Below, piece by piece: positions 42,288 through 64,000 of a stretch of 64,000 nucleotides of DNA. The stretch covers positions 1,612,001 to 1,676,000 of the forward strand of contig NZ_CP019607.1 in the NCBI RefSeq assembly GCF_001998865.1. Reading direction: 5' to 3'. The position numbers and the translations under genes were made by a program. The stretch's first letter is position 1; the number at the start of each line of letters is the position of its first letter. The notes below the pieces were generated by a model. That model was not told the DNA's origin. It made no database searches and was given only the letters and a program-made list of their open reading frames with translations. The stretch comes from Tessaracoccus flavescens (GTDB taxonomy: Bacteria > Actinomycetota > Actinomycetes > Propionibacteriales > Propionibacteriaceae).

Positions 42288-42387
42288 AAACGTATCCCGA
42301 TAAGTCTATCTGAAGACGGTTTGTTTCACCACGTCCAGGGGTGCCCCACGGCAAAGTGTGGGCGCTCTGACGGGGCGGGGCGGTCAT
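42288..42387 (-). pseudogene. Remnant small gene after the relaxase (copy 2)
   Basis: ATG at 42385-42387 overlaps the relaxase stop. The first codons (MTAPPR) and the nucleotide sequence match the copy at 39703-39801, but an indel shifts the frame. Homology between the two copies ends at the same point, near the ACGTA(T/A) stretch. The stretch 42283-42330 also holds GAAACAAA and TTTGTTTC as an 8-bp inverted repeat just upstream of the AbiEi-like gene. Confidence 0.5.
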
Positions 42388-44228: not shown

Positions 44229-44233
44229 GCTAG
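43244..44233 (+). CDS. IS481-family transposase
   Basis: A 329-residue DDE transposase from the ATG at 43244 (MSHTNAVLTPTGRLRLARLV). It has two helix-turn-helix motifs (WVLRRAAERFGVSVTTARRWSERY; WGPARIAYRLGLNPSTVHKVLRRYG) and catalytic Asp in LVHVDIKKL, Asp in RVLTDNGSCC and Glu in GKVERFNRTM. It ends QNS followed by TAG, whose bases lie in the flanking GCTAGC. Intact. Confidence 0.93.
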   Translation: MSHTNAVLTPTGRLRLARLVVDDGWVLRRAAERFGVSVTTARRWSERYRLHGRAGMVDRSSRPRSNPNQLPQRTERRIVGLRVTHRWGPARIAYRLGLNPSTVHKVLRRYGCPPLRWVDPATGCRIKTSRADKRHYQHPAPGDLVHVDIKKLGRIPDGGGHRALGRAGGVRNKVATEANRRPGYAFLHNAVDDHSRLAYSEILTDERKDTAAGFWKRANAWFNSMGITVNRVLTDNGSCCRSNAFKTALGEDISHKRTRPYRPQTNGKVERFNRTMLEEWAYARPYKSETERVEAFPEWLHHYNHHRGHTSLKGQPPAARVPNLSGQNS

Positions 44234-46116: not shown

Positions 46117-46576
46117 TTGAAAATTGACCCTGTCCCGCACCGACGTCGTAGGCATCTTCCCCGACCGCGACGCCATCCTCCGCCTCGTCGGCGCCGTCCT
46201 CGCCGAACAACACGACGAATGGGCCGAAGGCCGCCGCTACCTCGCCCTCGACGTCCTCACCCGAGCCCGCACCAAGACCCCCGCCGACCCGCAGGCCGCC
46301 GCCACGGCCCTGCCCGAACTGGAGCCCGCAGCATGACCCGACTCACCGACATCTACGGACCCGGCCACTCCCAGGCCGCCCTCGCCGCCGGCCACGAAAC
46401 CGGCTGGTGGGACGAACACGGCGTCCCCGCCCCCTGGCCCGAGGACCTCCTCGATCCCAACAACGGCTGGCGCCCAGGCACCGGCCTGCCCGTCACCCTC
46501 GAACCCGGCCAACCACCCTTCTGACCGCCCCAAACGAAGGATCAGCCGTTACACCACCTCCAGGGACTTGACCGAC
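46117..46576 (+). mobile_element. Remnant of a second IS256-type element
   Basis: Begins with DNA reading [45 protein letters not shown] (stop 46334-46336), the usual C-terminus of another actinobacterial IS256 transposase type. It ends with GGATCAGCCGTTACACCACC and the following CTCCAGGGACTTGACC, which looks like the right terminal repeat. Just left of it (46085-46135) are repeats AAAACTGACCCCC and AAAATTGACCC, reminiscent of IS21 ends. The N-terminal part and left end are lost. Confidence 0.65.
46333..46524 (+). CDS. Small protein coupled to the IS256 remnant
   Basis: A 63-residue protein ([20 protein letters not shown]...[30 protein letters not shown]). Its ATG overlaps the transposase-remnant stop by 4 bp (ATGA). 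It is acidic and rich in Pro, Gly and Trp and has no known motif. It is probably an accessory frame of that element. Confidence 0.5.
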
Positions 46577-47320
46577 CTGGCGGAGTTCCGCGTGGACTTC
46601 CGAGCCGAGGGCAGCTTCGGGGTGCAGCATCCCGACGTCCGTCGTCGCGCGATGGCCGGGTAGAACGGCTCCATCACCCACATTGACTTCTAGGTCAACC
46701 GCCTCATGGAGGTGCTGAGCGATCTCGGACTCCGCGAGAACACGGCGGTGCTCTTCGTCTCCGACCACGGCGACATGATGGGCGACCCCCATTTCTACCG
46801 CAGGACGGTCGGGTACGAGGGCAGCGCCCGCGTGCCGTTCCTCGTCCGCCTGCCCGGGGGCCGAGCGGTTCGTCCGAGGGTGGATGAGGTGGTCGAGTTA
46901 CGAGACATCATGCCCACGGTCCTCGACATCGCTGGGGTGCCCATCCCTGCAGGCGTTGACGGCGTCAGCGTGCTGCCGCTGATGCAGGACGCAGAAGTGA
47001 CGTGGCGCTCGGAAATCCACGGTGAACACGTCGCGGAGGTCTTAAGCAACCAGTCGATGCATTGGGTCACAGACGGCAGGAGGAAGTTCATCTGGTTCTC
47101 CGGCTCCGGCATGGAGCAGTTCTTCGACCTGGACGGCGATCCCACGGAATCGCGGAACCTGATCCACCAGCCGGACCGGTTCGAAGAGGTCGCGGGCTGG
47201 AGGAACAGGCTCGTGGCGCATCTGGATGGCTGGGAGGAGGGGTTCGTCAGCGACGGCAGACTCGTCGCCGACCGGCCGGTCCAGACCGAGATGTCGTGGG
47301 TCCGGGCACTGCTGGGCTGA
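46577..47320 (+). pseudogene. Sulfatase, truncated and with two in-frame stops
   Basis: Only the C-terminal half is present. It begins at the IS256 remnant's right end (DLAEFRVDFRAEGSFGVQHPDVRRRAMAG), then TAG at 46661-46663, NGSITHIDF, TAG at 46691-46693, and VNRLMEVLSDLGLRENTAVLFVSDHGDMMGD onward. Comparison within the family suggests that the stops replaced a Tyr and a Gln codon. The formylglycine site and N-terminus are gone. The intact stretch (46706-47320) ends QTEMSWVRALLG. A second, complete sulfatase lies at 53842. Confidence 0.85.
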
Positions 47321-47331
47321 GGCGTCGGGGC

Positions 47332-49821
47332 TCAGGCCACAGTCCAGCCGTGCTCCCTCTTGGACGCGAACCTTTCTTCGAGCGATCTGCCTCCCACGGT
47401 GGGGGCGGCACCCTGCCCCCAGGACTCCACGCGGATAGGTTGATCAGGCGTGCCGTATCCCCAAAGCACGACGTCGGCGTCGGGGGTGTCGGTGCCGGAG
47501 CGGAACCGCAGCACGGCGCCGGTTGCCAGTTCCACGTCCCGGAGCTGCTCCATCGAGGCGATCGGACGTTCAACCGAGCCGTCTCCCGCGTGGCTCACCG
47601 ATCCGTCGATGTGGACCTCCCGTGCCTTGCCCGGGTCTGATGCCAACTGCTCCCACAGGTGGATCGCCGCAATCGTGTAGCTGCCGCGCGACGATGTCAC
47701 GCGGACCCGCCAGCGTTGGGCCGTCACGGGCTCGTCGAGTGTGACGATGCGGTGCGCCCCGATGGTGCCCCCCCGTGCCACCTCGCGCCAGCCGTCCCCC
47801 TCATCGCACTCCACGATGAACAGGCGCACCGTCTGTCCTGCCCCGAGGATCTCCTCGCTCAGCCCGACGCGGCTGATCTGTCTGGGCTCGCCGAGGTCGA
47901 GTTCGATCCAGGGGTGCTCGTCGGCCGTGAAGGAGTGGCCTTTCCTGAGGTTGCCGTTGGTCATCGTCGCGACCACGGAGCCCTCCACGATGGCGTCGCG
48001 ACCCAACGCGTGGTCCAGCGTGAATGCCTTGCGCCGCTCCGCCGCGAAGCCCTCCACGCTCGCCACCACGTCGGCGGAGAACTGTCCCGAGTCGGTTGGG
48101 GGCACGTTCAACAGCGTCACCGAATTGCGACCGTACGTCTGTTCGTAGTGCCGCAGCAACGTCAGTGGGGCCTTGGGGACGTCGTCGGGGTGCGCGAACC
48201 ACCCGGCAGTGATGCGCATGTCGGACTCCGTCGGCCACCAGTGCAGCCTGTCAGCGCCGCCCGAGCGGGCGGCGTCGACGAGTTGCTGGTCGGATCCGAG
48301 ATCCGCGGAGAAGTGACCCTGCTGGACCGGCGAGATGGCCCCCCCGTCGCCGGCGTCGGTGATCGCGACGCTGGCCCATTCGTCCTGGCGTGCCACCCCG
48401 CTCTCGTTGCCGACCCAGCGGATGTCGCGCCCTCCGACGGCGATGTTGGCGCCCGGCTGGAGTTGGTGGATCATGTCGTAGAACGCGGCGTGGTCGTAGT
48501 GTTCGGTAGCGCCTGTGTTGCCTTGGGCGCCATCGAACCAGACCTCGTGCACAGTGCCGTACTCGGTGAGGATCTCGTAGAGGGTGTTGAGGAAAAGCGC
48601 GCCGTAGTCGGTGGCATGGTACTCGAACGTCTGCAACTCCTGACCGGCCCGGTCGTCGTCGGCCGTGAGCGTGGGGATGGTCCGAGGACTGCGCTGCGAC
48701 CCGTTGCCGAACGTGCCCTGCAACTCCGCGTTGGAGTCGGCGGGGGACAGGTAGAAGCCCACCTTCATGCCGTAGCGATGGGCCGCTTCGACGAACAGGC
48801 GCGCGATGTCGCCGCCACCGGAGGCCCAGGAGCTCGCCTTTACGGAGTGGTCGGTGTATCGGCTCGGCCACAGGCAGAAGCCGTCATGGTGCTTGAGCGT
48901 GATCACTGTGGTGCGGAAGCCCGCGTCGCGCAGCACCCTTACCCAGGCGTCGGGGTCGATGTCGGAGGGGAGGAACCGGCCCGGGTCCTCGGTGCCGTGG
49001 CCCCACTCCTGGTCGTAGAACGTGTTGATGCCGAAGTGGATGAAGGCGGTCAGACCCTCCTGTTGCCAGACGGCCTGCTCGGGTGTCGGTCTCAGCAGTG
49101 ATGCCTTGTGGATGATGGCGGCGGGGGAGTCGCTCGGGCTCACGTTCTGGTAGTTGGCCGGGTGGAGTCCGGCAAGGTCGGCGGCCTCCGTGGCAGTGAG
49201 CTCGGTCTCGACGTCGATGACCGGAGTCGTAGGTTGCCAGCGCCACTCGGAGGACGCGACGGCCACGCGTACACCGTGGACCTCGCCGACGAGCCCTGAA
49301 GCGCCCTCGAAGTCGCTGCCGAAGCTGAACAGCGCCTGATCCGAAACCGGGCCGAACTCCAGGTACCCCATGTCCCGGCCGTCGAGACGGGCCTCCATCT
49401 GCACGGAACCTTCGTCGCTCCGGATCCGCACCGACAGCGTGTGGTGGGTATCGACGCCGAACACGTCCTCGCCGCCGGGCCAGCCGTGCCATTCGCCGCG
49501 GGCCCAGAGCATCAGGTTCAGGTGATGCACACCCAGCGTCACTCCGGAGCTTGTGATCAGGACCGCAGGGCTGACCGTCGGCTGGTCAAGTGCGAAGCGC
49601 AGTTCAACGGTCGAACCCTCGGGCTGCGCAGCGGCAGGCTCAAAAAGCAGACCCCCGTCGCCGGCCAGCCTCACGCCGGACACGGACTGCTCCTCGGCTC
49701 CGGTGATGGGGCGCAGCGTGCCCCGCATCACCTCCCCGGCCTGGGTGGTGTATTGCTTGCCCTTCACCAGCGAACCGGCGAACTCCACCTGCAACAGGTC
49801 CGGCTGTTCCCATCTTTCCAT
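47332..49821 (-). CDS. Alpha-L-fucosidase, GH29
   Basis: An 829-residue enzyme. Residues about 1-190 form a beta-sandwich (lectin/LamG-like). The GH29 barrel covers about 230-610, with GLTAFIHFGINTFYDQEWGHGTEDP, VITLKHHDGFCLWPS, GMKVGFYLSPAD and the nucleophile Asp in HEVWFDGAQG. Residues about 610-745 resemble a discoidin domain (HPWIELDLGEPRQISRVGLSEEI). A shorter beta-rich tail follows. No signal peptide is present, so it should act in the cytoplasm on imported fucosylated glycans. It is divergent from the ABC importer. Confidence 0.9.
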   Translation of the reverse strand: MERWEQPDLLQVEFAGSLVKGKQYTTQAGEVMRGTLRPITGAEEQSVSGVRLAGDGGLLFEPAAAQPEGSTVELRFALDQPTVSPAVLITSSGVTLGVHHLNLMLWARGEWHGWPGGEDVFGVDTHHTLSVRIRSDEGSVQMEARLDGRDMGYLEFGPVSDQALFSFGSDFEGASGLVGEVHGVRVAVASSEWRWQPTTPVIDVETELTATEAADLAGLHPANYQNVSPSDSPAAIIHKASLLRPTPEQAVWQQEGLTAFIHFGINTFYDQEWGHGTEDPGRFLPSDIDPDAWVRVLRDAGFRTTVITLKHHDGFCLWPSRYTDHSVKASSWASGGGDIARLFVEAAHRYGMKVGFYLSPADSNAELQGTFGNGSQRSPRTIPTLTADDDRAGQELQTFEYHATDYGALFLNTLYEILTEYGTVHEVWFDGAQGNTGATEHYDHAAFYDMIHQLQPGANIAVGGRDIRWVGNESGVARQDEWASVAITDAGDGGAISPVQQGHFSADLGSDQQLVDAARSGGADRLHWWPTESDMRITAGWFAHPDDVPKAPLTLLRHYEQTYGRNSVTLLNVPPTDSGQFSADVVASVEGFAAERRKAFTLDHALGRDAIVEGSVVATMTNGNLRKGHSFTADEHPWIELDLGEPRQISRVGLSEEILGAGQTVRLFIVECDEGDGWREVARGGTIGAHRIVTLDEPVTAQRWRVRVTSSRGSYTIAAIHLWEQLASDPGKAREVHIDGSVSHAGDGSVERPIASMEQLRDVELATGAVLRFRSGTDTPDADVVLWGYGTPDQPIRVESWGQGAAPTVGGRSLEERFASKREHGWTVA

Positions 49822-49869
49822 CTCGGCTCTTTCGGTTTTGGGGCTTCCTCGGCCTCATTTGTAGCGACT

Positions 49870-49916
49870 ATAGTGGGCCGTGGCGAGACGTCACACCACT
49901 TGTGTTAGCGTTAGCA
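49870..49916 (+). promoter_or_regulatory. Promoter and LacI-type operator between GH29 and the importer
   Basis: TATAGT at 49870-49875 is a candidate -10 element for the rightward operon. TGTTAGCGTTAGCA at 49903-49916 fits the TGnTAnCGnTAnCA palindrome bound by LacI-family repressors. It lies just downstream of the expected transcript start and could also affect the divergent GH29 gene. No LacI-family gene is visible within the window. Confidence 0.5.
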
Positions 49917-50017
49917 CCCTTGGCCGCAGGCCTCGCCGGGACGACCGAAGTTGTGAGTCCCGAAGAACGATCGATGACGGTGGGTCAAGGACCAGCCCCG
50001 CCGGGAGAGGAGTCGAG

Positions 50018-50935
50018 TTGGCCGCCAAGAGCCGAACGGCAAACCGCATCACCGAGACCAGAGGGGACAAGCGCCTCAACATCACGCTTCTGGTAGTCCT
50101 CGGGGCATTCTCGGTGTCAGTGTTGTACCCGCTGATCTACGTCATGAGCGCGTCCCTGTCGGAGACGTCGGCGGTCACCTCTGGCGAGGTCTGGCTGTTC
50201 CCAATCGGATTCTCGACGAACGCGTACACGGCGGTCTTCGAGTCGCCGCTGCTGTTTCGTAGCATCCTGAACTCGTTGTTTTACGCCGGGATGGTGATCG
50301 CCATCGGCACGTTCGCGACGATGGCGGGGGGCTACGCGCTGTCGCGGCGCGACCTGCCTGGCAGGAACCTCCTCACGTTCGCGTTCATGATCACCATGCT
50401 GTTCAGCGGCGGCATGATTCCCACCTACTTGGTCGTGCGCGATCTCGGGCTGCTCAACACCGTGTGGTCCATGATCCTTCCGGGCGCGGTCAGCGTGTGG
50501 CAGTTGATCATCTCGCGTGCGTTCTTCTCCCAGACCATCCCGCATGAGCTCTTGGAGAGCGCCAAGATGGACGGCGCCTCCGACTTCACGTTCTTCTTCA
50601 AGGTCGTGTTGCCGCTCTCGGTGCCAGTCATTGCCGTCAACATGCTGCTCTACGGCGTCACCACCTGGAACGCCTTCTTTAACGGCCTGATCTACTTGAC
50701 CGACGAGGAGTTGTACCCGCTGCAGCTGGCCATGCGAAACATCCTCGTCCAGAACACCTTCGACCCGGCGAAGATGGCGGGCGTGGACCCGACGAAGATC
50801 GCCGAGATGCAGGCCATCGCCGGCAAGCTCAAGTACGCGCTGATCGTGATCGCGTCGATCCCGCCGCTGTTGGCATACCCGTTCGTCCAGAAGCACTTCG
50901 TCAAGGGCATGATGATCGGCTCGGTGAAGGGATGA
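50018..50935 (+). CDS. Carbohydrate ABC transporter permease (LplC/YtcP type)
   Basis: A 305-residue inner-membrane protein. The TTG at 50018 is chosen because GGAGAGGAG lies 5 bases upstream; the longer frame from 49880 reads unlike the family. Six transmembrane segments are expected; the ATPase-docking EAA loop is HELLESAKMDGASDFTFFFKVVLPLS. Family-typical MLFSGGMIPTYLVVRDLGLLNTVWSMILPGA and WNAFFNGLIYL are present. The stop overlaps the next permease start. No ATPase gene is nearby; CUT1 importers of this type often share one. Confidence 0.9.
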   Translation: MAAKSRTANRITETRGDKRLNITLLVVLGAFSVSVLYPLIYVMSASLSETSAVTSGEVWLFPIGFSTNAYTAVFESPLLFRSILNSLFYAGMVIAIGTFATMAGGYALSRRDLPGRNLLTFAFMITMLFSGGMIPTYLVVRDLGLLNTVWSMILPGAVSVWQLIISRAFFSQTIPHELLESAKMDGASDFTFFFKVVLPLSVPVIAVNMLLYGVTTWNAFFNGLIYLTDEELYPLQLAMRNILVQNTFDPAKMAGVDPTKIAEMQAIAGKLKYALIVIASIPPLLAYPFVQKHFVKGMMIGSVKG

Positions 50936-51939
50936 CCCAGATGTTAAACACCAACGACGGCACCGCATCCACGGACAGCGCGCACAAGGGAGGAGCCGCC
51001 TCCGAGAGCACCATCCGGAGCAACAGGCCGGTTCCCCTCCTGAAGCGGATGGCCAGAAGCTGGCAGCTGTACGTCCTGTTGTTGCCGAGCCTGATCTGGC
51101 TCGTCGTGTTTGCCTACCTGCCGATGTACGGCCTGCAGATCGCCTTCAGGGAGTTCAACCCCATGCAGGGCATCATCGACAGCCCATGGGTGGGCCTTGC
51201 CCAGTTCGAGAGGTTCTTCGAGTCCAACAACTTCGTGCCGCTGTTGTGGAACACGATCGCGCTGGCGCTCTACGAACTGATCGCGGGATTCCCGATTCCG
51301 ATCGTCCTGGCACTCGCACTGAACGCCCTTCGCCAGAAGTACCTCAGCCGTTCAGTGCAGCTGATCACCTATGCACCGAACTTCCTGTCCGTGGTCGTCG
51401 TGGTCGGCATCCTCATGATGATCCTGGACCCCCAGATCGGCGTGGTGCACCAAGTGCTCGGCGCGCTCGGAATCGATGCGCCGCAGTTCCTCACGGATCC
51501 GGGATGGTTCCGCCACGTCTTCGTCTGGTCCGGCATCTGGCAGACCGCCGGGTTCTCCGCCATCATGTACCTCGCCGCTCTCAGTTCCGTACCCCCGGAA
51601 CTCCACGAGGCTGCCAAGGTCGACGGCGCGTCCCTGTTCCGCCGCATGGTCCACATCGACCTGCCCTCGATCATGCCCATCGCCGTGATCCTCCTGATCC
51701 TCAGCGTCGGCAACATTCTCAACACCGGTTTCGAGAAGGTCCTGCTCCTGCAGAACCCCCTGAACCTCACCGTGTCGCAGGTGATCGACACCTACGTCTA
51801 CGAGGTGGGCCTGAAGTCACCCATACCCCAGTTCAGTTATGCCACGGCGATCGGGCTGTTCAAGTCAATCGTCGGCCTCATCCTGCTGTTGGCGGTCAAC
51901 TTCTTCGCCAACAAGACCACCAAGAGCGGTCTCTTCTGA
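50932..51939 (+). CDS. Carbohydrate ABC transporter permease (LplB/YteP type)
   Basis: A 335-residue permease with a cytoplasmic N-terminus of about 40 residues and six membrane segments. Landmarks: LLLPSLIWLVVFAYLPMYGLQIAFREFNP and the EAA loop PELHEAAKVDGASLFRRMVHIDLPSIMP. It pairs with the preceding permease (4-bp overlap) to form the channel. Members of this group import large oligosaccharides such as oligogalacturonides, which fits the glycan genes around. Confidence 0.92.
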   Translation: MTQMLNTNDGTASTDSAHKGGAASESTIRSNRPVPLLKRMARSWQLYVLLLPSLIWLVVFAYLPMYGLQIAFREFNPMQGIIDSPWVGLAQFERFFESNNFVPLLWNTIALALYELIAGFPIPIVLALALNALRQKYLSRSVQLITYAPNFLSVVVVVGILMMILDPQIGVVHQVLGALGIDAPQFLTDPGWFRHVFVWSGIWQTAGFSAIMYLAALSSVPPELHEAAKVDGASLFRRMVHIDLPSIMPIAVILLILSVGNILNTGFEKVLLLQNPLNLTVSQVIDTYVYEVGLKSPIPQFSYATAIGLFKSIVGLILLLAVNFFANKTTKSGLF

Positions 51940-51994
51940 GTCAGCACACCCAGCCTGCTCCCAAGTCTGTATCCCAACGAAAGGTTTGAAGTCC

Positions 51995-53749
51995 ATGACC
52001 GAGCACATTCTGCCCAAGGCGGCAGTATCCAGGCGCTCCCTCCTGACGGGCGGGCTTGGCGTCACAGCCATGGTCGGCCTGTCCGCCTGTGGTTCAGGCA
52101 GCTCCAACACCCCCACCGCCGGAGCGCCCACTGGTGGTGGTTACGTCCCGGGGAGCGCACAACTGAAGGTCGAACTCGGCAAGGAGTTGACCGGTGTCCT
52201 CTATCCCGACGGCTACGTCGGGCCCAGGGCCCGCGCTGCCGAGAAGTTCGCCGACGGCCAGACCACATACAGGGTCGTCACGCGTAGCTTCGTCGGTCAG
52301 GACGTCGCCGGCGACAACACCTTCTCCAAGCATCTGGAGAACGCCACCGGTGTCAAGGTCAAGTATGAAATCGTTCCAGCGGGCGACGACGGCGCGCCCA
52401 AGTTGAACGCCATGATGTCCTCGGGTGACCTTCCCGATGCGTTCATGACGGGTGCTCCGTGGATGGGCGGCTTCACACGCTCACAGCTCTGGACCTACGG
52501 GCAGCAGGGGATGTTCATCGCCTTGGACGAACTGATCGACCAGTACGCCCCCGAGCTGGTGAACCTCTTCAGTCAGTTCCCGGAATTGCGCAAGGTCATG
52601 ACCGCCCCCGACGGGAAGATGTATGCGTTCCCATCGATCAACCAGTGCTACCACTGCTCCTCGAGCGGGCAGCGCACCTGGATCCACACCCCCTCGGCCG
52701 AGGCCGTCGGCGCCACGGGGGAGAGCGCCTCCACCCTTGAGGAGTTCGAGGCCTTGCTCAGGGAGTTCAAGGCCATGGGCATGATCCCCATGAGCGGTTA
52801 CATCGAGTTCCCCCCGATGTCGCTCATCGAGGCGGCATACCTCAACGTCGGCGATGATCGGCTGCGGCGCAAGGACGGCCAGATCTCGTACACCCCGATC
52901 GAGGAGGGGTGGCGCGAGGCGATGATCACGACGAACCGGCTGGTCAAGGAGGGGTTGTTGGACCCCAACGGTTTCAGCCAGACCATCGACCAGTTCAAGC
53001 GGCTGGCCATGGACCCGGCGGGCACGCGGGTGGCCGTCCTGCCCGGTCAGTCCCAGGGCGAGTTCGCCGAGATCAACTTCAGCGACCCGAACGCGAGGTT
53101 CCGCGAGTTCCAGCCGCTGAAGCCCTTCACCGGGCCCGATGGCGATGCCCACGTCGCGTGGGGCTACAATCCCGGTCACAACGTGGGTCTGGTCCTGACC
53201 AGCAAGACGCGCAACCCAGAGGAACTCATCCGTTGGGCCGACTACCAGACGGGCCTTGTCTCGACGCTCAGCATGCGTCTGGGCGAACTCGACGAGCACT
53301 GGGGCTGGGCGGTCGAGGGCGACACGGGCATTGACGACCGCCAGGCTGTCTACAAGAAGACGGGGACCCCCAGCGACGAAAACGATGCCTGGTGGGAGAT
53401 GGGTCCGTACAACCTCGTGATGGACGTCCGACACGGGGAGTCCGTCGACGACAACACCTCGATCGAGCCCAACCTGTACCGCGCCGGCAAGATGTACGAG
53501 CCCTTCGCCGCACCGGAGGAGGAGTATTTCCTGGAGCCGTTCTTCACGATCGAGCAGGCCGCCCAGGTGGGCGAGTTGAAGGTGAACCTCGACAATGCGT
53601 TCAAACAGGGCCGGGCCAACCTCGCCCTCGGCAACGCAGACCCGGCCAACGACAAGGACTGGGAGAACTACGTGAACTCGCTGAAGGGTGCAGGTCTCGA
53701 CCGCTATCTCGAGATCCTCAAGGCCGCGGACGACGCCACCAACGGCTGA
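51995..53749 (+). CDS. Extracellular solute-binding lipoprotein (LplA type)
   Basis: A 584-residue lipoprotein. Twin arginines (SRRSLLTGG, 13-14) and the lipobox LSAC with Cys32 give export and lipid anchoring. The mature part is a family 1 binding protein: KLNAMMSSGDLPDAFMTG, GQQGMFIALDELIDQYAPEL, DGKMYAFPSI, AVLPGQSQGEFAEI, SKTRNPEELIRWADY. It delivers an oligosaccharide to the two permeases upstream. The ATG at 51995 is 55 bp after the second permease. Confidence 0.92.
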   Translation: MTEHILPKAAVSRRSLLTGGLGVTAMVGLSACGSGSSNTPTAGAPTGGGYVPGSAQLKVELGKELTGVLYPDGYVGPRARAAEKFADGQTTYRVVTRSFVGQDVAGDNTFSKHLENATGVKVKYEIVPAGDDGAPKLNAMMSSGDLPDAFMTGAPWMGGFTRSQLWTYGQQGMFIALDELIDQYAPELVNLFSQFPELRKVMTAPDGKMYAFPSINQCYHCSSSGQRTWIHTPSAEAVGATGESASTLEEFEALLREFKAMGMIPMSGYIEFPPMSLIEAAYLNVGDDRLRRKDGQISYTPIEEGWREAMITTNRLVKEGLLDPNGFSQTIDQFKRLAMDPAGTRVAVLPGQSQGEFAEINFSDPNARFREFQPLKPFTGPDGDAHVAWGYNPGHNVGLVLTSKTRNPEELIRWADYQTGLVSTLSMRLGELDEHWGWAVEGDTGIDDRQAVYKKTGTPSDENDAWWEMGPYNLVMDVRHGESVDDNTSIEPNLYRAGKMYEPFAAPEEEYFLEPFFTIEQAAQVGELKVNLDNAFKQGRANLALGNADPANDKDWENYVNSLKGAGLDRYLEILKAADDATNG

Positions 53750-53768
53750 TCCGGCACGCACTCACCCT

Positions 53769-53803
53769 GCACCCACAGGCGCCACGCGGGCGTCTGTGGG
53801 TGC
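53769..53803 (+). terminator. Hairpin between binding protein and sulfatase
   Basis: GCACCCACAGGCGCC pairs with GGCGTCTGTGGGTGC with one G-U pair. It may lower read-through into the sulfatase and favour high levels of the binding protein, a common pattern in ABC operons. Confidence 0.6.
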
Positions 53804-53841
53804 TAACACTTCCAACGCCGACCGCGTCACAAGGAGTCACC

Positions 53842-55302
53842 GTGTCCACCGCCACCGCCAGGCCCAACCTGCTGTTCGTGATGTCCGACGACCATGCGGC
53901 CCACGCGATCAGCGCCTACGGCAGCGCGGTGAACCAGACACCCAACATCGATCGGATTGCCCAGGAGGGTGCGCGTCTCGACAGGGTGTTCTGCACCAAC
54001 TCAATCTGCACGCCGTCGAGAGCGACCATCCTCACCGGCACCTACAGCCACGTCAACGGCGCCTGCTCCATCTACTCGGAGCTGGACTACCGGGTGCCGC
54101 CGTACTCCCAGGTGCTGCGGGCTGCGGGGTACCAGACCGCGATCTTCGGGAAGTGGCACCTGGGCGTCTCGCCGCAGGCCAGACCTCGGGGGTTCGATGA
54201 CTGGCGCATCTTTCCTGGTCAGGGGGCCTACGTGGACCCCGTCATGTACGGTCCGGACGGCGAGGGTGTTGTCGAGGGCTATGCCACCGACATCATCACC
54301 GACCTGAGCCTCGAGTGGCTCCAGGTCAGGAACCGGGACCGGCCCTTCTGCCTCATGGTGCACCACAAGGCTCCGCACCGCCCATGGGTGCCGCATGAGC
54401 GACACCGGGACCTCTACCCCGCCGGCTCGATCCCCGAGCCTCTGACCATGTGGGACGACCACAGCGGTCGTGCAAGCGTTGTGCAAGCGGTTCGGATGAC
54501 GATCGCCGACGACCTGACCGATGCCGACATCAAGGAGACCGTTCCGGCGGAGTTGTTGGGAGCCGAGAACACACGGGAGCGGGCAGCGTGGAAGTACCAG
54601 CGCTACATGCGTGATTACCTGCAGACCGTCCAGGCCGTCGACGACGGGGTCGGCCGACTTCTCGACTGGCTCGATGCTGAAGGCTTGGCCGAGAACACCA
54701 TCGTGGTCTACACCTCGGACCAAGGCTTCTTCCTCGGAGACCACGGCTGGTTCGACAAGCGCCTGATGTACGAGCAGTCCCTTGGCATGCCGCTGGTCAT
54801 CAGGTGGCCCGCGGAGATCACCGCCGGAACCCGGTGCCAGGAGATGATCACCAACGTGGACTTCGCGGCCACGTTCCTGGACATGTGCGGGCTGGACCCC
54901 GACGTTGCGCTGCCCCACCAGCAGGGCCGGAGCTTCCGTGTCCTCCTTCGGGGAACGGACGTGCCCGACTGGCCATCAGCTGTCTACTACCGCTACTGGG
55001 AGCACGACGACCCGGAGCACCTCGCCCCAGCGCACTACGGCGTCCGCAGCGAGGACTTCAAGTACATCGTCTACTACAACGACGGACTGGGGACGCCCGG
55101 GTCGTCCGAGCGGGTCCTGCCGACCGAGTACGAACTGTTCGACCTCCGCAGGGATCCCGCCGAACTGCACAACGTCGTCGATGACCCGGACTACGCCGCC
55201 GTGAGGCTGGAGCTGGAGGCGGAGTTGGGCCGGCTGCAGGACAAGTACGCAGACGAGCCATACCAGGGACCGCAGACCCCGCGTCTGCACTGGAGCACCT
55301 GA
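53842..55302 (+). CDS. Sulfatase (formylglycine type)
   Basis: A 486-residue hydrolase of the alkaline-phosphatase superfamily. N-terminal metal site: NLLFVMSDDHAAHA. Modification motif CTPSR with Cys56, to be converted to formylglycine. Then GKWHLGV, VHHKAPHRPWVPHERHRD, and the second metal site YTSDQGFFLGDHGWFDKRLMYEQS. No signal peptide, so it is cytoplasmic. The GTG start follows AAGGAG. It probably removes sulfate from imported host-type glycans. A formylglycine-generating enzyme is not in the window. Confidence 0.92.
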   Translation: MSTATARPNLLFVMSDDHAAHAISAYGSAVNQTPNIDRIAQEGARLDRVFCTNSICTPSRATILTGTYSHVNGACSIYSELDYRVPPYSQVLRAAGYQTAIFGKWHLGVSPQARPRGFDDWRIFPGQGAYVDPVMYGPDGEGVVEGYATDIITDLSLEWLQVRNRDRPFCLMVHHKAPHRPWVPHERHRDLYPAGSIPEPLTMWDDHSGRASVVQAVRMTIADDLTDADIKETVPAELLGAENTRERAAWKYQRYMRDYLQTVQAVDDGVGRLLDWLDAEGLAENTIVVYTSDQGFFLGDHGWFDKRLMYEQSLGMPLVIRWPAEITAGTRCQEMITNVDFAATFLDMCGLDPDVALPHQQGRSFRVLLRGTDVPDWPSAVYYRYWEHDDPEHLAPAHYGVRSEDFKYIVYYNDGLGTPGSSERVLPTEYELFDLRRDPAELHNVVDDPDYAAVRLELEAELGRLQDKYADEPYQGPQTPRLHWST

Positions 55303-55314
55303 GACCGGGCGGGG

Positions 55315-57513
55315 TCAGGAAGCACGGAGCAACACACAGCGGTAAAGCCGCTTCGAGACGCCAACGGGAGCCTCGACCTCACACTCCACCACCGTCGCCC
55401 CGGACTCCAGGGTCACGGCCAGCCAGCCGTCGGCGTCGGGCTCGACGGGGATGCCGTGGACTGCCAACCGCACCGGGTGGCCGTCGACGGGCTTGAACCT
55501 GATGCGGATCCGGGCCAGGTCGTCGGGCACCCGGACCACGACGCTGTCCGCGGGCCAGGGAAGCGGTGGCACCGACAGACCTTCCGTTTCCACCGACTCC
55601 AGCGCTGCGAGGGGGGCCTGCGGGGGCTCCAGCCGGACGAAGCCCTCGACGATCAGGTCATCGGCCGCCATGGCATGGTAGGTCAACTCCTGGTTCACGC
55701 CCTGACCAGTGGCGTTACCGCGGAACTGCACTGCTGTGCAACCGCGAACGATCGCGAGCGGGCCGGAGGGGGTGGGCTCCCCCAGCGGATCAGGCCCGTA
55801 GCGGACGATCGTGTTGCCGGTGAAACTGATCCCCGAGACGGATCTGGCGTCCAGGACGGGGATGTCGGCCGACAGGAAGACGTTGTCCCGAATCACGATG
55901 CCTGAGTGCGCCGCCTTGGACGGGTCCTCGCCGGCCGCCGTGGGCTCCACGAGGATCTCGGCCTTGGCCCTGGTCGAGGTGGCGGGCCTGACGAAGACGT
56001 TGTTCCGGATCACCAGGTCCCGCACCACACTGGACTCGTACCACTGGGAGGCGTCTGCGGAGACGTAGATGGAGGCCATCTCGACGCGCTCGAAGCGGTT
56101 GTCTTCGATGACCACGGAGCCTCGGGTGGTCACGAGCATGCCCCGGGTGGCGATGGATTGGAAGCGGTTGCGACGCACCGCCACCGCCGGGTTGTAGGTG
56201 AGGTTCTCTGCGACGACTCGGCCGGGAATGGCCGCGTCGGGAAGTGGCTCGTCGAAGGTCAGGTTGACGTTCTCCAGATCAACGGAGTGGTCCTGTCCTG
56301 AGGGGCCGTGCACGTCAATGACGGTGCCAGCCCAGGGCAGGTCCAGCATCGTGTCGCGGTCCACGAGCGCCACTGTGTCGCCGGGGTGGAACAGTGGGAA
56401 CCCGCTGGTTTCGTGGTGCATGAATCTGAACGTAGCGACGGGACCGTCGACCGCCACCAGCTGGACGTAGGTGTTGTGGATGTTGATGGCGTCGTCGTGA
56501 GAGAACCCGAAGTCGTTGTCCTCTATCACGACGGTGCCTTTGTCTCCGGAGATCTGCACCAGGTCCGCGAACCCGACGGTCGTACGCCTGGACCCCGCGG
56601 GCGCGCGGAAACGCACCCCCCGCACGGTGACGGAGTCTGTCATCTGTGCGATCATCCCAAATCCGTGGAGGTAGCCGATGTCCATGTCGGCTATGACCGA
56701 GTCCTTCGCCTCCCAGAGGAGAGCGCCGGGCGTGTCGCGCATGGTGCGACGGAGCTGGAAGACCGTACCCAACGCGCTCGGGGAGCCGCCCTCGCCGTAG
56801 GTGTGGCGCAGCACACCGGGCGCGATCTCGCGCACCGAGACCAGACCGCTGCGCAGCGGGTTGGGCAAGTCCAGCATGGTGCCGCCGTGGGCCCTCCCCG
56901 TTTGCAGGTCGGTGATCTGCATGAAGTCGTAGCCGAGGTCGGGCAGCGGTACGTCCAGGGGTTCTGGGCGGTGGTAGACCCAGTGGGGCTGACCCGAGGA
57001 GCTGTCCTCGGACAGCCAGGTGACCTCCGTGCCGCAGATCTGGTAGCGGTACCCCGCGGGCACGAGCAGGTCGTGGTGGTCTGGGCCTGAGTGGATCACG
57101 GTCAGGTCGATCGCGCGGGGCGTGACCCAGTCCACTGCGAAGCCCCGGATGGAGGCGCGGCGGGTGCGGATCATCGCGAACAGTGTCTGCTGCCCGTGCA
57201 TCACCAAGGTGGCGCCTTCGCCGTCAATGGTCACGTCGCACAAGTCCTCCAGCAGGACGGCGATCCGCTTGTGGCGGTGCTCTTCGCGGCTGCCGACAGT
57301 GTTGGACACGTAGAACTCCCGCACCGGGGCATGGTCCGGGTGGACGTGGTAGACGCCCGGCGGGACGACCACGCGCTTGGGGCCGGGAACGGAGCGGGCG
57401 TGTTCGAGCGCTCGTGCGAGGGCTGGCGTGAGGTCTCCCGGATCCAGCGAGAAATCCGAGACGTCGATGAGTGTCTCATCCGGGTGGCTCGCCTCATCCA
57501 AGGGACGGTTCAC
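55315..57513 (-). CDS. Right-handed beta-helix protein, GH110-like alpha-galactosidase
   Basis: A 732-residue cytoplasmic protein (no signal). The N-terminus ([35 protein letters not shown]) is pectate-lyase-like. The central part ([27 protein letters not shown]) resembles the DDAxNIHGTY region of GH110 alpha-1,3-galactosidases, which act on blood-group B structures. Repeated short strands ([39 protein letters not shown]) show the helix coils. The GTG start overlaps the GH95 stop (GTGA), so it is the last gene of that operon. The GH110 label is recognition by pattern; other beta-helix families cannot be excluded. Confidence 0.7.
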
Positions 57514-60197
57514 CTGGCTATCCGCTTCTGACGGCGTGACTGTTCTGCCGGGGCCACGGCCATCTCCCGGACGCTCGGCTGGTGCGACGTCACCACGCCG
57601 TTGACACTCACGTCCACCGGGGTGTCGCTTGCGCCGCGGTCCGCGACGACGTCGAAGTCCACCACCTTGCCGTCGCGCCAGCGGCAGTTGACCTGGTAGC
57701 CGCCTCGGGCGCGCAGGCCGGTGAAGGAGCCGGTGGCCCAGGCCTGGGGCAGGGCTGGTAGGAGATCGATGGTCCCGTCGTGGCTCTGGAGCAGCATTTC
57801 ACTGATCGCCCCGGTGATGCCGCAGTTCCCGTCCAGCTGGAAGGGTGGGTGGCTGGTGAACAGGTTGTCGAGGGTGTTGAAGGTCAACAACCCTCGCAGC
57901 ATGGTGCGGGCGCGTTCGGCGTCGCCGAGCCTGGCGAACAGGGCGGCGCGCCAAGGCCAGGTCCAGGAGCGGCGGCTGTCTCCGGTGACGGTGGCTGCGG
58001 TGAACGGCTCTCCGTCTATCTCGCCGGACCGGGCCTTGAGGGATACCAGCGCGGCGGTGGCGAATTCACGGTCTGCGCGAGTGATCTGCCGGCCGGGGTA
58101 GACGGCGAACAGGTGGGAGGTGTGGCGGTGGAAGTTGTGGGGATCGTCGCGGTCGTCCTGCCATTCCTGCAGTTGGCCCCAGCTCCCGACCTTGTTCGGC
58201 GCGAGGCGCTGTTGCAGACCGGCGACGATGTCCTGGTACTGGCGGTCGACGTCGAGGGCCCGGGCGCAGTCGAGATAATTCTGGAACAGGTCCCAGACGA
58301 TCTGCTGGTCGTACATGACGCCGTCCTCGCGGGGCCCGTGCTCGGGGGACCAGCCGTCGGGGGAGTAGAGCAGACCGTCGTCATGCTCGACGAGGCGATC
58401 CTCCCAGAACTCGCAGATCTCCTTGACCACCGGGTAGATGGTCCCGCGCAGGAGGTCGGCGTCCTGGTTGAAGGCCCAGTGCTCGTAGAGGTGCTGGGCG
58501 TACCAAGCGCTGGCGACCTTATTCCACTCCCACGAGTTGCCGCCGAAGATTGACTGGCTGGTGCGAGTGGTCCAGCCGCGGACGTCCTCGCCAAAGGCGT
58601 TGCGGGTGGCCACTCGCGACGGCACGGCCACTTCCTTGACGAACTCCACCAACGAGCGGTGACTCTCCGGCAGGTCGGTGGTCTCCGCAGCCCAGTAGTT
58701 CATCTGGATGTTGATGTTGGTGTGGTAGTCAGCCCCCCAGATGGGCTCATTGCTGTCGTTCCAGAGCCCCTGCAGGTTCGCGGGGAGGCCATCGGCGCGG
58801 GATGCGGAGAACGTGAGATATCGGCCGTAGTCGAACAGCAGCTGCTCGAGCGACGGATCCTCCGCCCCGTCGGCGTAGCGCCGGAGCCGCGCATCGACGG
58901 GCAACGCCAGGACTGCGGGATCAGTGGCACCCCAGTCCACCGCCACTCCGTCCATCAGCGACTTCACCCGGTCCACATGGTCAGACCGCAGCCGCTCGTG
59001 ACCGAGAGACTCGGCGGCCGCGACGGCCACAGCCGGGTCCGGGACGGCGCCGGTCCGCCAATCGGCGGAAGCGTCCAGCTTGTAGTCAGTGCGAGCGTCC
59101 AGCACCAGCGTCACCTGGCTGCAGCCCTCGAACCGCAAGGAGCTGCCATCCCGCGCCAGAGAACCACCGACCGGCAGGACACGCAGCTCGGCCCCGAACC
59201 GCAGGTCATTGGCCAGCACCGACGCGAACCGTAGCGCAGCCTCGGACTCGTCGACCTCGACGTCAACGCCCTCCTGAGCCGAGGTGAGGGCGACGGTGCC
59301 GGAGAGTCGTTCACCGGTGTAGTGCACGACGACGACGTCGGCGTCCCGGCTGGCGAAAGCCTCCCGGGTCACCGGGCCCGTCACGCCAGAAAAGCTCGTG
59401 GTGTGCACCCCCCGCTCCAGGTCCAGGACCCGGCGATAATCCACCACCGGGGTGAGGGTGCGGCTGTCCATGCCGTCAGCAATAAGGAACACCCCCGCGA
59501 GCGAAATCGCTTGGCCAGGGGTGAAACTCATCCGGTAGGACGAGTACGCGCGGCCCGCGTCCACGGGGAAGGTGTGGGAATCCCCGCGCCCGGCGAAGCT
59601 AGTCCCGGATTGGGTGTCAAGCGTGTCCCAGCTGAGGCCGTCCACAGTCGCTTCAAGGCTCCACCCCATGGGATCGCCGCCGGGGCGAAGCGAGGAGACC
59701 ACACCGTATGCGGTGACGGCGCCCGGTCTCACCAGATCGGCCTGCCACACCACCGGCTCACCGTTCCCGGTGGCTTCCCAATCAGTCTCGCGGTCGCCGT
59801 CGGCGGTGAACTCGATGCCCGCGGAGTGCCCGCTGGGGGAGTGGAGGTAGAGGTGCTCGGGCTCCGATGACCCCAGAATGGGCTCCTCGCCGAACGAGAC
59901 CACGACGTCCCCGAAGTTGAGATACGAACCGAAGCCGGTGACGCTGAGGTCGTAGCCGCTTTCGGGCTGACCGGCCAGCGCGTTGTCGTAGCCGTTCAGG
60001 CCACCCCAGAGGCTCTGCTCGTTGAACTGGATGCGATCGACGAAGGGACCGCCGAACAGCATCGCTCCGAGTCGGCCGTTGCCGATCGGCAGCGCCTGCG
60101 TCTCCCAGTCCTGCGCTGGCAGCCGGTACCACAGCGCCCTTCGCCACAGGGCCGGCTGTCCTGGGATAATTTGCTGCTCTGGGTGTGCTTCGCGCAT
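57510..60197 (-). CDS. Alpha-L-fucosidase, GH95
   Basis: An 895-residue enzyme that removes alpha-1,2-linked fucose. Start at ATG 60197 after GAAGGACG. The GH95 N-terminal domain begins [29 protein letters not shown]...FNEQSLWGG. It is interrupted at about 115-245 by a discoidin-like insert, then resumes [19 protein letters not shown]. The barrel has [66 protein letters not shown] and [23 protein letters not shown], covering the usual Asn, Glu and Asp positions. No signal peptide. It sits 26 bp after GH2. Confidence 0.93.
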
Positions 60198-60223
60198 CGG
60201 GGCGTCCTTCACGGGTTGGGTTC

Positions 60224-63217: not shown

Positions 63218-63442
63218 GACTCTCTTCTCATCACCTTGAGTGGACCGGCAGCCAGACGGGTCTGCCAGCCGCGTTGCGGGAACCGTAACCGTACCATCGG
63301 GGGAACGGCGCCGAGCAGCGGACCGACCCTCGGCGGCCTTGCTGTGCTGGCTCTGGTGAGCCGCGGCGCCCCGGGTGCCGGCAGCTTACCGAACAGCCGT
63401 CTTGCCGAACCCAGCAGCACCGCTTTCGTGACGGTCGCTCCC
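63218..63442. other. Gap between GH20 and GH2
   Basis: About 225 bp without a gene. On the minus strand it contains short direct repeats around GGTACGGTTACGGTT (about 63280-63300), which might be part of a control site. No clear terminator is seen. Confidence 0.35.
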
Positions 63443-64000
63443 CTAGTAATTCGCCAGATCGGCGATTTGGGCGGCAGTGAGCGCCGGCCCGTGACCGTCT
63501 GGCCGCCGCCGTCTGCCCTCGCCACCGCGCTGCCAGGGGTGTGGACCCTCGAGCGGGCGGTGGTTGACGCCAGCGGCCTCCAGCCGTCGCAGGTGCGCGC
63601 GCAGTCGGGGTTCCAGTTCCGATGGCTCCACAGGTCCGCTCCAAGCCACCTCTGCAAGGACGCAGGTCCGGGGGAAGGCCATGTACTCCACCTCGGCGGG
63701 CGTGGTCATGAACTCCGTCCACACCTGGCCCTGGATCCCGAGCAGGTTCGGCAGGTGCTCATCGGCCACCCCGGCCACGGGGTCGAAGGAGGCCACGTCC
63801 TGCCAGCTGGACGGGGCCGGCTGGGCGAACGGTTCGTCGGGTGAGTCGGACTGGTAGTAGTCGAAGTAGTAGGGGACGTTCGACGCCATCACCACCTGGT
63901 GTCCGGCCGCCAGCGCCCGTCGGCCGGGTTCCCGACCGTGCCAAGACATGACGACCGCTTCCGGCATGTCGCCGTGGTCGACGATCTCATCCCAGCCAAC
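63443..64000 (-). CDS. Beta-N-acetylhexosaminidase, GH20 (C-terminal part, cut by window edge)
   Basis: The window contains the last 185 residues. They begin VGWDEIVDHGDMPEAVVMSWHGREPGRRALAAGHQVVMASNVPYYFDYYQ, the end of a GH20 barrel, with the family Trp and Tyr residues, then GIQGQVWTEFMTTPAEVEYMAFPRTCVLAEVAWS. The catalytic Asp-Glu pair would lie upstream, outside the window. It would release GlcNAc or GalNAc from glycans. It is probably the first or an early gene of the leftward glycosidase operon. Confidence 0.9.
   Translation of the reverse strand, partial: VGWDEIVDHGDMPEAVVMSWHGREPGRRALAAGHQVVMASNVPYYFDYYQSDSPDEPFAQPAPSSWQDVASFDPVAGVADEHLPNLLGIQGQVWTEFMTTPAEVEYMAFPRTCVLAEVAWSGPVEPSELEPRLRAHLRRLEAAGVNHRPLEGPHPWQRGGEGRRRRPDGHGPALTAAQIADLANY

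What the first reader, a model, noticed from the sequence alone, without database searches (positions are those of the whole stretch)
46577..64000. Actinobacterial locus for fucosylated, galactosylated, sulfated glycans
GH29 and GH95 fucosidases, a GH110-like beta-helix enzyme, GH2 beta-galactosidase, GH20 hexosaminidase, two sulfatases (one broken) and a CUT1 importer lie together. The set matches mucin O-glycan or blood-group A/B/H structures. No intact hydrolase shows a signal peptide, so the logic would be import first, cytoplasmic cleavage later, unlike Bacteroidetes loci with surface enzymes. Domain calls are from motifs; the substrate is inference.
Basis: partly seen in the sequence, partly recalled or inferred. 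Interest (0 to 1): 0.8.

Follow-up and report, generated by a model that had tools for sequence, protein, structure and literature searches.

The report
Mobile gene island for host sugars
An actinobacterium carries a 20-kb block of genes, recently shared with another species of its genus, that most likely imports fucose-, galactose- and sulfate-decorated glycans of the animal type and takes them apart inside the cell; it is a tidy new version of a known kind of feeding locus rather than a new kind of system.

Summary
The gene calls hold: GH29, a CUT1 permease pair, a lipoprotein binding protein, one intact S1 sulfatase, GH110, GH95, GH2 and, running past the window end, GH20 and a Gfo/Idh/MocA oxidoreductase. 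The beta-helix protein is GH110 by Pfam, catalytic residues and predicted fold; its nearest solved structure is the blood-group-B galactosidase AgaBb. The sulfatase is closest to GlcNAc-6-sulfatases. I see no signal peptide on the intact hydrolases.

New: (1) the block (46686-67163, extended coordinates) is 98.2% identical in another Tessaracoccus species whose rpo region is 88.4% identical, so it moved recently; there IS110-family genes flank it. (2) The transporter promoter carries a LacI-type palindrome; in 565 kb of own DNA examined its only match within 2 mismatches is the promoter of the host's fucose operon. (3) GH110 proteins without signal-like segments tend to lie near CUT1 permeases. 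(4) The genome has fucose isomerase, GH112 and a formylglycine-generating enzyme.

Substrate remains inference: B-type, Lewis-fucosylated, 6-sulfated N-acetyllactosamine glycans fit best. Blood group A is not supported.

The parts
44673..46031 (+). Mutator-family transposase gene at the left edge of the block
   Evidence: Pfam PF00872 E 3.2e-115
46706..47320 (+). C-terminal fragment of a second S1 sulfatase (pseudogene; similarity reaches upstream to 46547)
   Evidence: Pfam PF16347 and the C-terminal part of PF00884; tblastn 46547-47284; 2 TAG inside the match; a 204-aa fragment ORF is also in G016
47332..49821 (-). GH29 alpha-L-fucosidase, GH29-B-like (alpha-1,3/4 type), with F5/8 type C domain; no signal peptide seen
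   Evidence: Pfam PF01120 5.9e-27; best PDB matches 4zrx 3.9e-89 and alpha-1,3/4-fucosidase 3mo4/3ues about 3e-73; FDG and DEW motifs
49880..50935 (+). CUT1-type ABC permease (start codon uncertain, probably downstream of 49916)
   Evidence: Pfam PF00528 3.9e-08; NCBIfam GlcU/UgpE matches, below their cut-offs
49903..49916 (+). LacI-type operator-like palindrome TGTTAGCGTTAGCA
   Evidence: control in 380 kb of own genome: no match within 2 mismatches, 4 with 3 mismatches
50932..51939 (+). CUT1-type ABC permease
   Evidence: Pfam PF00528 3.2e-18
51995..53749 (+). ABC solute-binding lipoprotein; the most divergent gene between the two island copies
   Evidence: Pfam PF01547 9.2e-07; lipobox seen in the translation; nearest PDB 5g62 7.6e-21, then AlgQ2 2.2e-14; 132 of 298 coding mismatches
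53842..55302 (+). Intact S1 sulfatase with CTPSR formylglycine motif; closest to GlcNAc-6-sulfatases (S1_11-like); no signal peptide seen
   Evidence: Pfam PF00884 3.9e-53 and PF16347 7e-45; PDB 5g2v 2.1e-121, 7p24 2e-107
55315..57513 (-). GH110 alpha-1,3-galactosidase, nearest to blood-group-B enzyme AgaBb; no signal peptide seen
   Evidence: Pfam PF23764 5.2e-08; PDB 8yk1 7.1e-109; D317, D340, D341 invariant in 18 of 18 sequences; AF2 model pLDDT 86.9, Foldseek 8yk1 TMq 0.87
57510..60197 (-). GH95 alpha-1,2-fucosidase with a galactose-binding-like domain between two parts of its N-terminal domain; start at 60197 preferred over the long ORF (60359)
   Evidence: Pfam PF22124 8.4e-130; PDB FucOB 7znz 2e-173; [21 protein letters not shown] motifs; a 98% relative is 895 aa
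60224..63217 (-). GH2 LacZ-type beta-galactosidase
   Evidence: Pfam PF02836 1.6e-88, PF02929 3e-46
63443..64000 (-). GH20 beta-N-acetylhexosaminidase; in-window part, continues to 65242
   Evidence: Pfam PF00728 6.1e-104 on L003:4443-6242

Best explanation
The block is a horizontally mobile, import-first catabolic island for host-type (or host-like) fucosylated oligosaccharides that carry alpha-1,3-galactose and 6-sulfated GlcNAc. A lipoprotein binding protein and CUT1 permease pair (ATPase presumably supplied elsewhere in the genome) import free oligosaccharides. In the cytoplasm the enzymes then act from the non-reducing end: GH110 removes the B-type alpha-Gal, GH95 the alpha-1,2-fucose, GH29-B the Lewis alpha-1,3/4-fucose, GH2 the beta-Gal, the formylglycine sulfatase the 6-sulfate of the exposed GlcNAc, GH20 the GlcNAc. 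Released fucose enters the host's fucose isomerase route, and a shared LacI-type operator probably puts the island under the same repressor as the host's fucose operon. Shown: gene families, predicted fold and catalytic residues of GH110, absence of obvious signal peptides, recent transfer between species, the two operator-like sites. Inferred: substrate, order of steps, co-regulation, ATPase.
For: Families. GH110 is closest to AgaBb in sequence (368 bits, against 129 for PdGH110B of the carrageenan clade) and in predicted fold (TMq 0.87 for the long AgaBb construct, 0.75-0.76 for its shorter ones, 0.65-0.68 for PdGH110B). GH95 closest to FucOB, with His where an L-galactosidase has Thr370. 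Sulfatase closest to GlcNAc-6-sulfatases; formylglycine-generating enzyme in the genome; of 3 sulfatase-family matches genome-wide only the island's is an intact gene with the formylglycine motif. FucI with an FGGY kinase next to it; complete GH112. 98.2% identity over 20.5 kb with G016 against 88.4% for the rpo region. Operator: 0 matches within 2 mismatches in 380 kb sampled; in 185 kb of targeted own DNA the only one besides the island's own lies upstream of the fucose operon. Among 80 GH110 loci, 20 of 24 with a CUT1 permease pair nearby lack a signal-like segment, against 14 of 56 others.
Against: No activity data. No secreted endo-enzyme identified, so the island may only scavenge free oligosaccharides. 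The nearest solved relatives of the binding protein bind other sugars as far as I know (recalled). GH110 with both permeases and GH95 occurs in 8 of the 16 Paenibacillus loci and both Microbacterium loci examined, so the ancestral substrate need not be mucin. The loose LacI consensus alone is not significant in the window (2 found, 0.77 expected), and the strict motif was defined after seeing the sites. Sites with 3 mismatches occur elsewhere (4 in 380 kb sampled, 3 in 185 kb targeted). No regulator gene was identified in the window's genome.
Confidence: 0.6

Rival explanations
1. The island targets blood-group-B-like or fucosylated sulfated glycans that are not mammalian mucin: bacterial O-antigens or exopolysaccharides, invertebrate mucus, or other environmental glycans; the enzymes and import logic are the same.
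For: Transporter-linked GH110 loci occur in genera that I know as soil and plant bacteria (Paenibacillus, Microbacterium, Planotetraspora, Lederbergia). A survey of sialic-acid catabolism counts Tessaracoccus among its non-animal-associated genera (passages of PMC8754123).
Against: GlcNAc-6-sulfatase-like S1, GH29-B, GH20 and the genomic GH112 together point to animal LacNAc/GNB-type glycans.
Confidence: 0.2
2. It is mainly a locus for milk-type or Lewis-type fucosylated oligosaccharides, with GH110 acting on linear alpha-Gal epitopes rather than on the fucosylated B antigen.
For: GH20, GH29 and GH95 also mark bifidobacteria that use milk oligosaccharides, and B. breve cleaves imported fucosyllactose with an intracellular GH95 (passages of PMC10187079). 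GH110 members split into B-specific, mixed and linear-only classes (Discussion of PMC7939477).
Against: The GH110 scores far higher with AgaBb than with the linear-only PdGH110B and its database relatives include the Peterkaempfera griseoplana alpha-1,3-galactosidase A (38% identity); no tree was built and the fucose-pocket residues were not mapped. The sulfatase would have no evident role.
Confidence: 0.12
3. Algal sulfated galactan locus (lambda-carrageenan or porphyran), with an L-galactose-6-sulfatase and alpha-galactosidase.
For: GH110 has a carrageenan branch (PMC7939477); an exo-L-galactose-6-sulfatase (7lha) matches the sulfatase at 2.6e-95; about half of S1_11, especially aquatic members, lack the N-acetyl-recognising region (passages of PMC10154612).
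Against: GH110 and GH95 sit nearest to host-glycan enzymes; GH20 and GH29-B have no role that I know in these polymers; none of the genes scanned in the block matched a lyase or carrageenase family.
Confidence: 0.04
4. The island is a decaying passenger: flanked by mobile elements, with one sulfatase already dead, and no longer functional.
For: Broken sulfatase with stops; mobile elements on both sides; reading frames of several genes are interrupted in the G016 copy.
Against: Every other gene is open in the window's copy, catalytic residues are kept, and the operator is intact in both copies. Most G016 gaps inside genes are single bases, as long-read assembly errors would give, but I cannot tell errors from real changes.
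Confidence: 0.04

Closest known systems
Alternative (CUT1) fucose operon of some Streptococcus pneumoniae strains, e.g. G54
   Same: CUT1 importer whose binding protein recognises the terminal trisaccharides of A and B, without its own ATPase, with an alpha-L-fucosidase and fucose genes in one operon (passages of PMC3302838)
   Different: [quoted passage not shown] none was found here (not searched genome-wide), and GH110, GH29-B, GH2, GH20 and a sulfatase are present. The fucose isomerase lies elsewhere in this genome
Bifidobacterium bifidum mucin system (GH110 AgaBb, GH95 AfcA and others)
   Same: Same glycosidase families; AgaBb is the nearest solved GH110; GH112 in both (passages of PMC7232152)
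   Different: AgaBb and related B. bifidum enzymes act outside the cell (recalled); here all look cytoplasmic, and 6-sulfated GlcNAc would be met by a sulfatase where B. bifidum has the sulfoglycosidase BbhII
Intracellular fucosyllactose/HMO use in Bifidobacterium breve and B. kashiwanohense
   Same: ABC import, then fucosidase cleavage, shown as intracellular GH95 in B. breve (abstract and passages of PMC10187079)
   Different: The passages read name GH110 only for B. bifidum and mention no sulfatase; the rest of the paper was not read
GH110-GH95-CUT1 loci of Paenibacillus, Lederbergia and Microbacterium
   Same: GH110 without signal-like segment near CUT1 permeases, and often a binding protein and GH95; Lederbergia also has a Gfo/Idh/MocA gene and a GH35 beta-galactosidase
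   Different: None of these shows the GH29, GH20 and S1 set as a whole by tblastn with the window's own proteins; their mobility was not examined

Membership tests
GH110 | Sequence-family signature and relation to characterised members | tested here: met
   PF23764 33.4 bits against cut-off 28; nine distinct GH110 chain sequences from 3.9e-28 to 7.1e-109
GH110 | Catalytic triad (Asp344 acid, Asp321 and Asp345 in PdGH110B; passages) | tested here: met
   D340, D341, D317 invariant in 18 of 18 aligned sequences, with the same distance of 23 residues. The +1 Arg is probably R457, also invariant, but was not aligned to PdGH110B
GH110 | Right-handed parallel beta-helix fold | tested here: met
   AF2 pLDDT 86.9, pTM 0.90; first 15 Foldseek rows are GH110 structures
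GH110 | Inverting alpha-1,3-galactosidase activity, B-antigen specificity | not testable with these tools
   needs enzyme assay
GH95 alpha-1,2-fucosidase | Catalytic Glu, two Asn, and His (not Thr) at the Fuc/L-Gal position | tested here: met
   [10 protein letters not shown] and HTNIN motifs; Thr370, Asn372, Asn374 of BACOVA_03438 from passages of PMC4491172, which itself calls the Thr/His difference suggestive, not proven
GH29-B alpha-1,3/4-fucosidase | Closest to known GH29-B enzymes, with nucleophile Asp and acid/base Glu | tested here: met
   3mo4/3ues about 3e-73 against 2.2e-12 for 2wvv; motifs; the GH29-A/B names are recalled
S1 formylglycine sulfatase, S1_11 (GlcNAc-6-sulfatase) | C-x-P-x-R motif and maturation enzyme | tested here: met
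   CTPSRA at residue 206 of the ORF; PF03781 at C1:1193946, 9.8e-74
S1 formylglycine sulfatase, S1_11 (GlcNAc-6-sulfatase) | GlcNAc recognition, not L-galactose | tested here: inconclusive
   5g2v and 7p24 are among the three best chains but an L-galactose-6-sulfatase is sixth; SulfAtlas not available and the recognition residues not mapped
GH109 (blood group A) | GH109 similarity on a Gfo/Idh/MocA protein | tested here: not met
   only general GFO/IDH/MocA domains; GH109 chain 6t2b at 4.8e-06 is 48th of 49 rows, below general dehydrogenases
IS110 composite element | Block flanked by two copies of the same IS | tested here: inconclusive
   met in G016 (left copy truncated), not in the window, where a mutator transposase and tyrosine recombinases flank it
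Pneumococcal-type A/B-antigen import operon | Binding protein specific for A/B trisaccharide; extracellular endo-enzyme | not tested
   binding needs experiment; GH98 was not searched; GH101 search negative but its controls found nothing

The most novel reading that the evidence does not exclude
A self-contained, mobile 'plug-in' diet module: a 20-kb island that moves between Tessaracoccus species, brings importer and exo-enzymes for B-type, Lewis-fucosylated, 6-sulfated LacNAc glycans as a wholly cytoplasmic pathway, and carries an operator that wires it at once into the recipient's own fucose regulon, while its binding-protein gene is exchanged separately to retune what is imported.
Probability: 0.3. 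Interest if true: 0.62.

Novelty: new variant of a known kind. Interest (0 to 1): 0.46.

Why it matters
It places GH110, best known from enzymes that act outside the cytoplasm (recalled), inside an import-first pathway, and suggests that signal-less GH110 with a CUT1 importer is a recurrent layout in Gram-positive bacteria. It is also a clear recent transfer of a whole glycan pathway between species, with a testable idea of how such an island is connected to the recipient's regulation. The GH110 and GH95 are possible tools for removing B and H antigens.

Tried and rejected
GH109 for the Gfo/Idh/MocA gene: rejected. GH95 as L-galactosidase: less likely (His instead of Thr; FucOB 582 bits against 328 for 4ufc). 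Algal locus: rejected as best reading. Plasmid carriage: none of 72,556 plasmid records holds the block (one match of 43 bases). NCBIfam gave no match for GH29, GH110, GH95, GH20 or the binding protein. Palindromes other than the LacI-type one in the intergenic stretches looked unremarkable. The other sulfatase-family protein of the genome (C1:290590) has a long hydrophobic N-terminal half and lacks the C/S-x-P/A-x-R motif; I take it for an LtaS-type membrane protein. The GH95 inserted domain looked unusual, but 60-62% relatives, mostly Streptomyces, also carry F5/8 type C domains (best 120 of 678 listed); whether these sit at the same place was not checked. GH101 search was negative, but nothing rang in the controls, so it says nothing. 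The transporter search among relatives found the same kind of importer beside a GH29 gene in G023 (and by tblastn in G034), which supports a fucosylated substrate but not this exact set.

Literature searches: GH110 with blood group and galactosidase, 21 papers; Tessaracoccus with mucin, 17 papers, 15 listed; AgaBb, 1; pneumococcal fucose terms, 22, 10 listed; GH110 with ABC transporter, intracellular and fucosidase, 5; a five-term search, 5; S1_11 terms, 22, 8 listed; Tessaracoccus with fucosidase, 3; GH110 with Paenibacillus and transporter, 2. By the titles and abstract starts shown, none describes this locus. Of papers I saw passages (PMC8754123, PMC4491172, PMC10187079, PMC7232152, PMC3302838, PMC10154612) and, of PMC7939477, passages and the Discussion; no paper was read whole.

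Weak points of the signal-peptide count: crude hydrophobicity rule (11-residue window, cut 1.9), longest ORF starts, neighbours anywhere in up to 10 kb, only 80 of 572 confirmed loci held; 10 of the 20 signal-less, transporter-linked loci are Paenibacillus. Of the 4 exceptions two (L037, L059) look to me like over-long starts. An 81st locus (L095, the G016 copy) was dropped because of its strand.

Full report
What was checked. The window is G000:C1:1612001-1676000 of a 3.65-Mb, two-contig genome. I fetched its continuation and scanned the main ORFs of the stretch with Pfam. The locus is longer than the finding says: GH20 runs to 65242 and a Gfo/Idh/MocA gene to 66997 (extended coordinates). 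Beyond lie four tyrosine recombinase genes, a mutator transposase and a reverse transcriptase gene; to the left lie mutator, IS481-type and ISL3-type transposase genes and an AbiEi-like gene.

Organism. G011, a same-genus genome, has its GH110 on a contig of 39,960 bases, the length of the Tessaracoccus bendigoensis contig that holds locus L030. The genus is therefore most likely Tessaracoccus; one of the nearest relatives of the binding protein (66%) is also named Tessaracoccus. The species and habitat are not known.

Gene layout. Three units can be read from strand and spacing: a rightward unit permease-permease-binding protein-sulfatase; a leftward unit Gfo-GH20-GH2-GH95-GH110, in which GH95 and GH110 overlap by 4 bases; and GH29 leftward, divergent from the permeases with 58 bases between the ORFs as called. 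The GH95 ORF opens at 60359, but a 98% relative is 895 aa, which puts the start near 60197. Intact hydrolases show no hydrophobic leader in their translations; the binding protein has a lipobox. No dedicated predictor was run.

GH110. PF23764 is matched above its cut-off, though only at 5.2e-8. AgaBb of Bifidobacterium bifidum is the best sequence match (8yk1, 368 bits), with PdGH110B far lower (7jw4, 129 bits). PdGH110B uses Asp344 as acid and Asp321 and/or Asp345 for the water (passages of PMC7939477). D340/D341 and D317 here are invariant in 18 of 18 aligned sequences, at the same spacing. An AlphaFold2 model (pLDDT 86.9) matches the long AgaBb construct over 844 alignment columns (TMq 0.87, rmsd 5.7), the shorter constructs at TMq 0.75-0.76 and PdGH110B at 0.65-0.68; the first 15 Foldseek rows are GH110 structures. 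PdGH110B cannot take the fucose of the B antigen, while blood-group enzymes likely open that pocket (Discussion); I did not map those pocket residues and built no tree.

Other enzymes. GH95: best match FucOB, an alpha-1,2-fucosidase (7znz, 2e-173); catalytic Glu and the two Asn are kept, and His stands where the L-galactosidase BACOVA_03438 has Thr370. A galactose-binding-like domain lies between two parts of its N-terminal domain. GH29: best matches are of GH29-B type, including alpha-1,3/4-fucosidases 3mo4/3ues. Sulfatase: CTPSR motif; best match GlcNAc-6-sulfatase 5g2v, third the mucin-desulfating sulfatase 7p24, sixth an L-galactose-6-sulfatase 7lha. A review (passages of PMC10154612) says the mucin S1_11 enzymes are exo-acting on GlcNAc-6-sulfate, and that many aquatic members use the same residues for L-galactose. 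Such an exo-enzyme fits between GH2 and GH20 in the order of removal. The genome has one formylglycine-generating-enzyme match. Of its 3 sulfatase-family matches one is this gene, one the broken fragment, and one a protein lacking the motif.

Genome background. L-fucose isomerase and a neighbouring FGGY kinase follow an ABC sugar importer. A complete GH112 galacto/lacto-N-biose phosphorylase is present; GH112 occurs in 18 of 39 genomes of the genus, this one included. One BNR_2 (sialidase-type) protein was found. These support the idea that the cell can use host-type glycans, but GH112 is not confined to island carriers.

Mobility. Of 60 genomes searched (the window's own included) 8 have a GH110 match, two of them weak or partial; among the 35 genus-mates two have strong ones, G016 at 97% and G011 at 41%, and one a weak one. 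The set holds one genome per species, so G016 is another species. Its block matches 46686-67163 at 98.2% over 20,507 columns in one piece, and the similarity stops at both ends. The rpo regions of the two genomes are 88.4% identical over the four aligned pieces, rpoB with flanks 90.1%, and another chromosomal stretch 79-84% in the three listed pieces. This is recent transfer. In the DNA search of 198 genomes of the family only G016, besides the window's own, holds the block; the other listed matches are parts at 64-80% (list cut), so sulfatase, GH2, GH29 and transporter have relatives in the genus while GH110 is rare. In G016 the block lies between a truncated and a full IS110-family transposase gene, both in one orientation, and between hsdS- and hsdM-type genes. 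The window's copy has other neighbours, so the vehicle is not settled. The sulfatase fragment is present in both copies. G016 has 98% completeness and 5% contamination, and several island genes are interrupted there.

An uneven gene. Of 298 coding mismatches between the copies, 132 lie in the binding-protein gene, which makes up 585 of 6,235 codons. The excess runs from about 51,600 to 53,750; a smaller one covers the end of GH110 (55,200-56,000). Separate recombination of the binding-protein gene is the simplest explanation; diversifying selection is not excluded.

Operator. TGTTAGCGTTAGCA at 49903 fits the LacI-type consensus TGNNANCGNTNNCA (consensus recalled). By itself that is not significant: 2 matches in the window, 0.77 expected. 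But the promoter of the host's fucose operon has TGCTAGCGTTAACA (L128:1786), and a GH29 ORF of another species, G027, has TGTTAGCGCTAACA just upstream (L109:5680). In 19 spaced stretches of own genome (380 kb; one of the 20 fetched was left out because it overlaps a targeted one) there is no site within 2 mismatches of the island's, and 4 with 3 mismatches; in 185 kb of targeted own DNA the fucose site is the only one within 2 besides itself, with 3 more at 3 mismatches. Related transporter loci in G023 and G034 carry other LacI-type palindromes just upstream of the permease gene (the only such site in the G023 stretch, one of three in the G034 stretch). The G016 copy keeps the site. I read this as likely co-regulation with fucose catabolism; the regulator is not identified and the strict motif was defined after the fact.

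Import-first GH110 elsewhere. With tblastn of the window's proteins, 24 of 80 have both permeases nearby; 20 of these 24 GH110 proteins lack a signal-like segment, against 14 of 56 without the pair (Fisher p 1.5e-6, not corrected for kinship). By the titles the 20 fall in ten genera, ten of the loci in Paenibacillus. So a cytoplasmic GH110 with a CUT1 importer is a recurrent layout. By this test, which uses the window's own proteins and so favours it, the window has the fullest enzyme set; a Micromonospora locus (L024) combines GH110 with GH95, GH29 and GH20 without an importer found.

Comparison. Import-first treatment of A/B sugars is known: one allelic form of the pneumococcal fucose operon has a CUT1 importer defined as specific for A and B trisaccharides, with an alpha-L-fucosidase (passages of PMC3302838). 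Bifidobacterium bifidum has a counterpart with GH110 (passages of PMC7232152; secretion recalled). Transfer of a sugar-catabolic cluster between Tessaracoccus species is also on record for sialic acid (passages of PMC8754123). Hence: new variant of a known kind.

Verdict. Observation confirmed; interpretation mostly right on families and layout, not on blood group A, and open on the true substrate.

Noticed in passing
window 51600-53750: The binding-protein gene is far more divergent between the two island copies than the rest (132 of 298 coding mismatches), suggesting separate exchange of the substrate-recognition gene.
   Followed up: partly
L003:8629-15328 (extended 67629-74328): Two tandem, slightly overlapping pairs of tyrosine recombinase genes (363+549 aa and 367+616 aa); the corresponding members of the two pairs are 34-37% alike.
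   Followed up: partly
L003:18004-18924: Reverse transcriptase gene (RVT_1), possibly of a group II intron or defence element.
   Followed up: no
window 35245-44233: Stretch rich in mobile and defence-like genes: ISL3-type and IS481-type transposases, AbiEi-like antitoxin, AAA_14/DUF4143 ATPase.
   Followed up: no
L094:8947-10155 and L095:13395-15014 (G016): In G016 the island lies between an hsdS-type and an hsdM-type gene, as if it had split a type I restriction locus; a gene with a LacI-type sugar-binding domain lies at L095:16717-17754.
   Followed up: partly
window 47332-49821: The GH29 protein has about 230 N-terminal residues and about 100 C-terminal residues without a Pfam match.
   Followed up: no
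L056:11925-13085, L055, L082: Relatives of the island's Gfo/Idh/MocA gene (35-37%) also lie near GH110 in Lederbergia, a Roseburia and a Paenibacillus, hinting at a role in handling one of the released sugars.
   Followed up: partly
G000:C1:1351603-1351692 (locus L002): A second, very short match to the GH29 family in the same genome (30 profile positions, 114-aa frame), perhaps a gene remnant.
   Followed up: no
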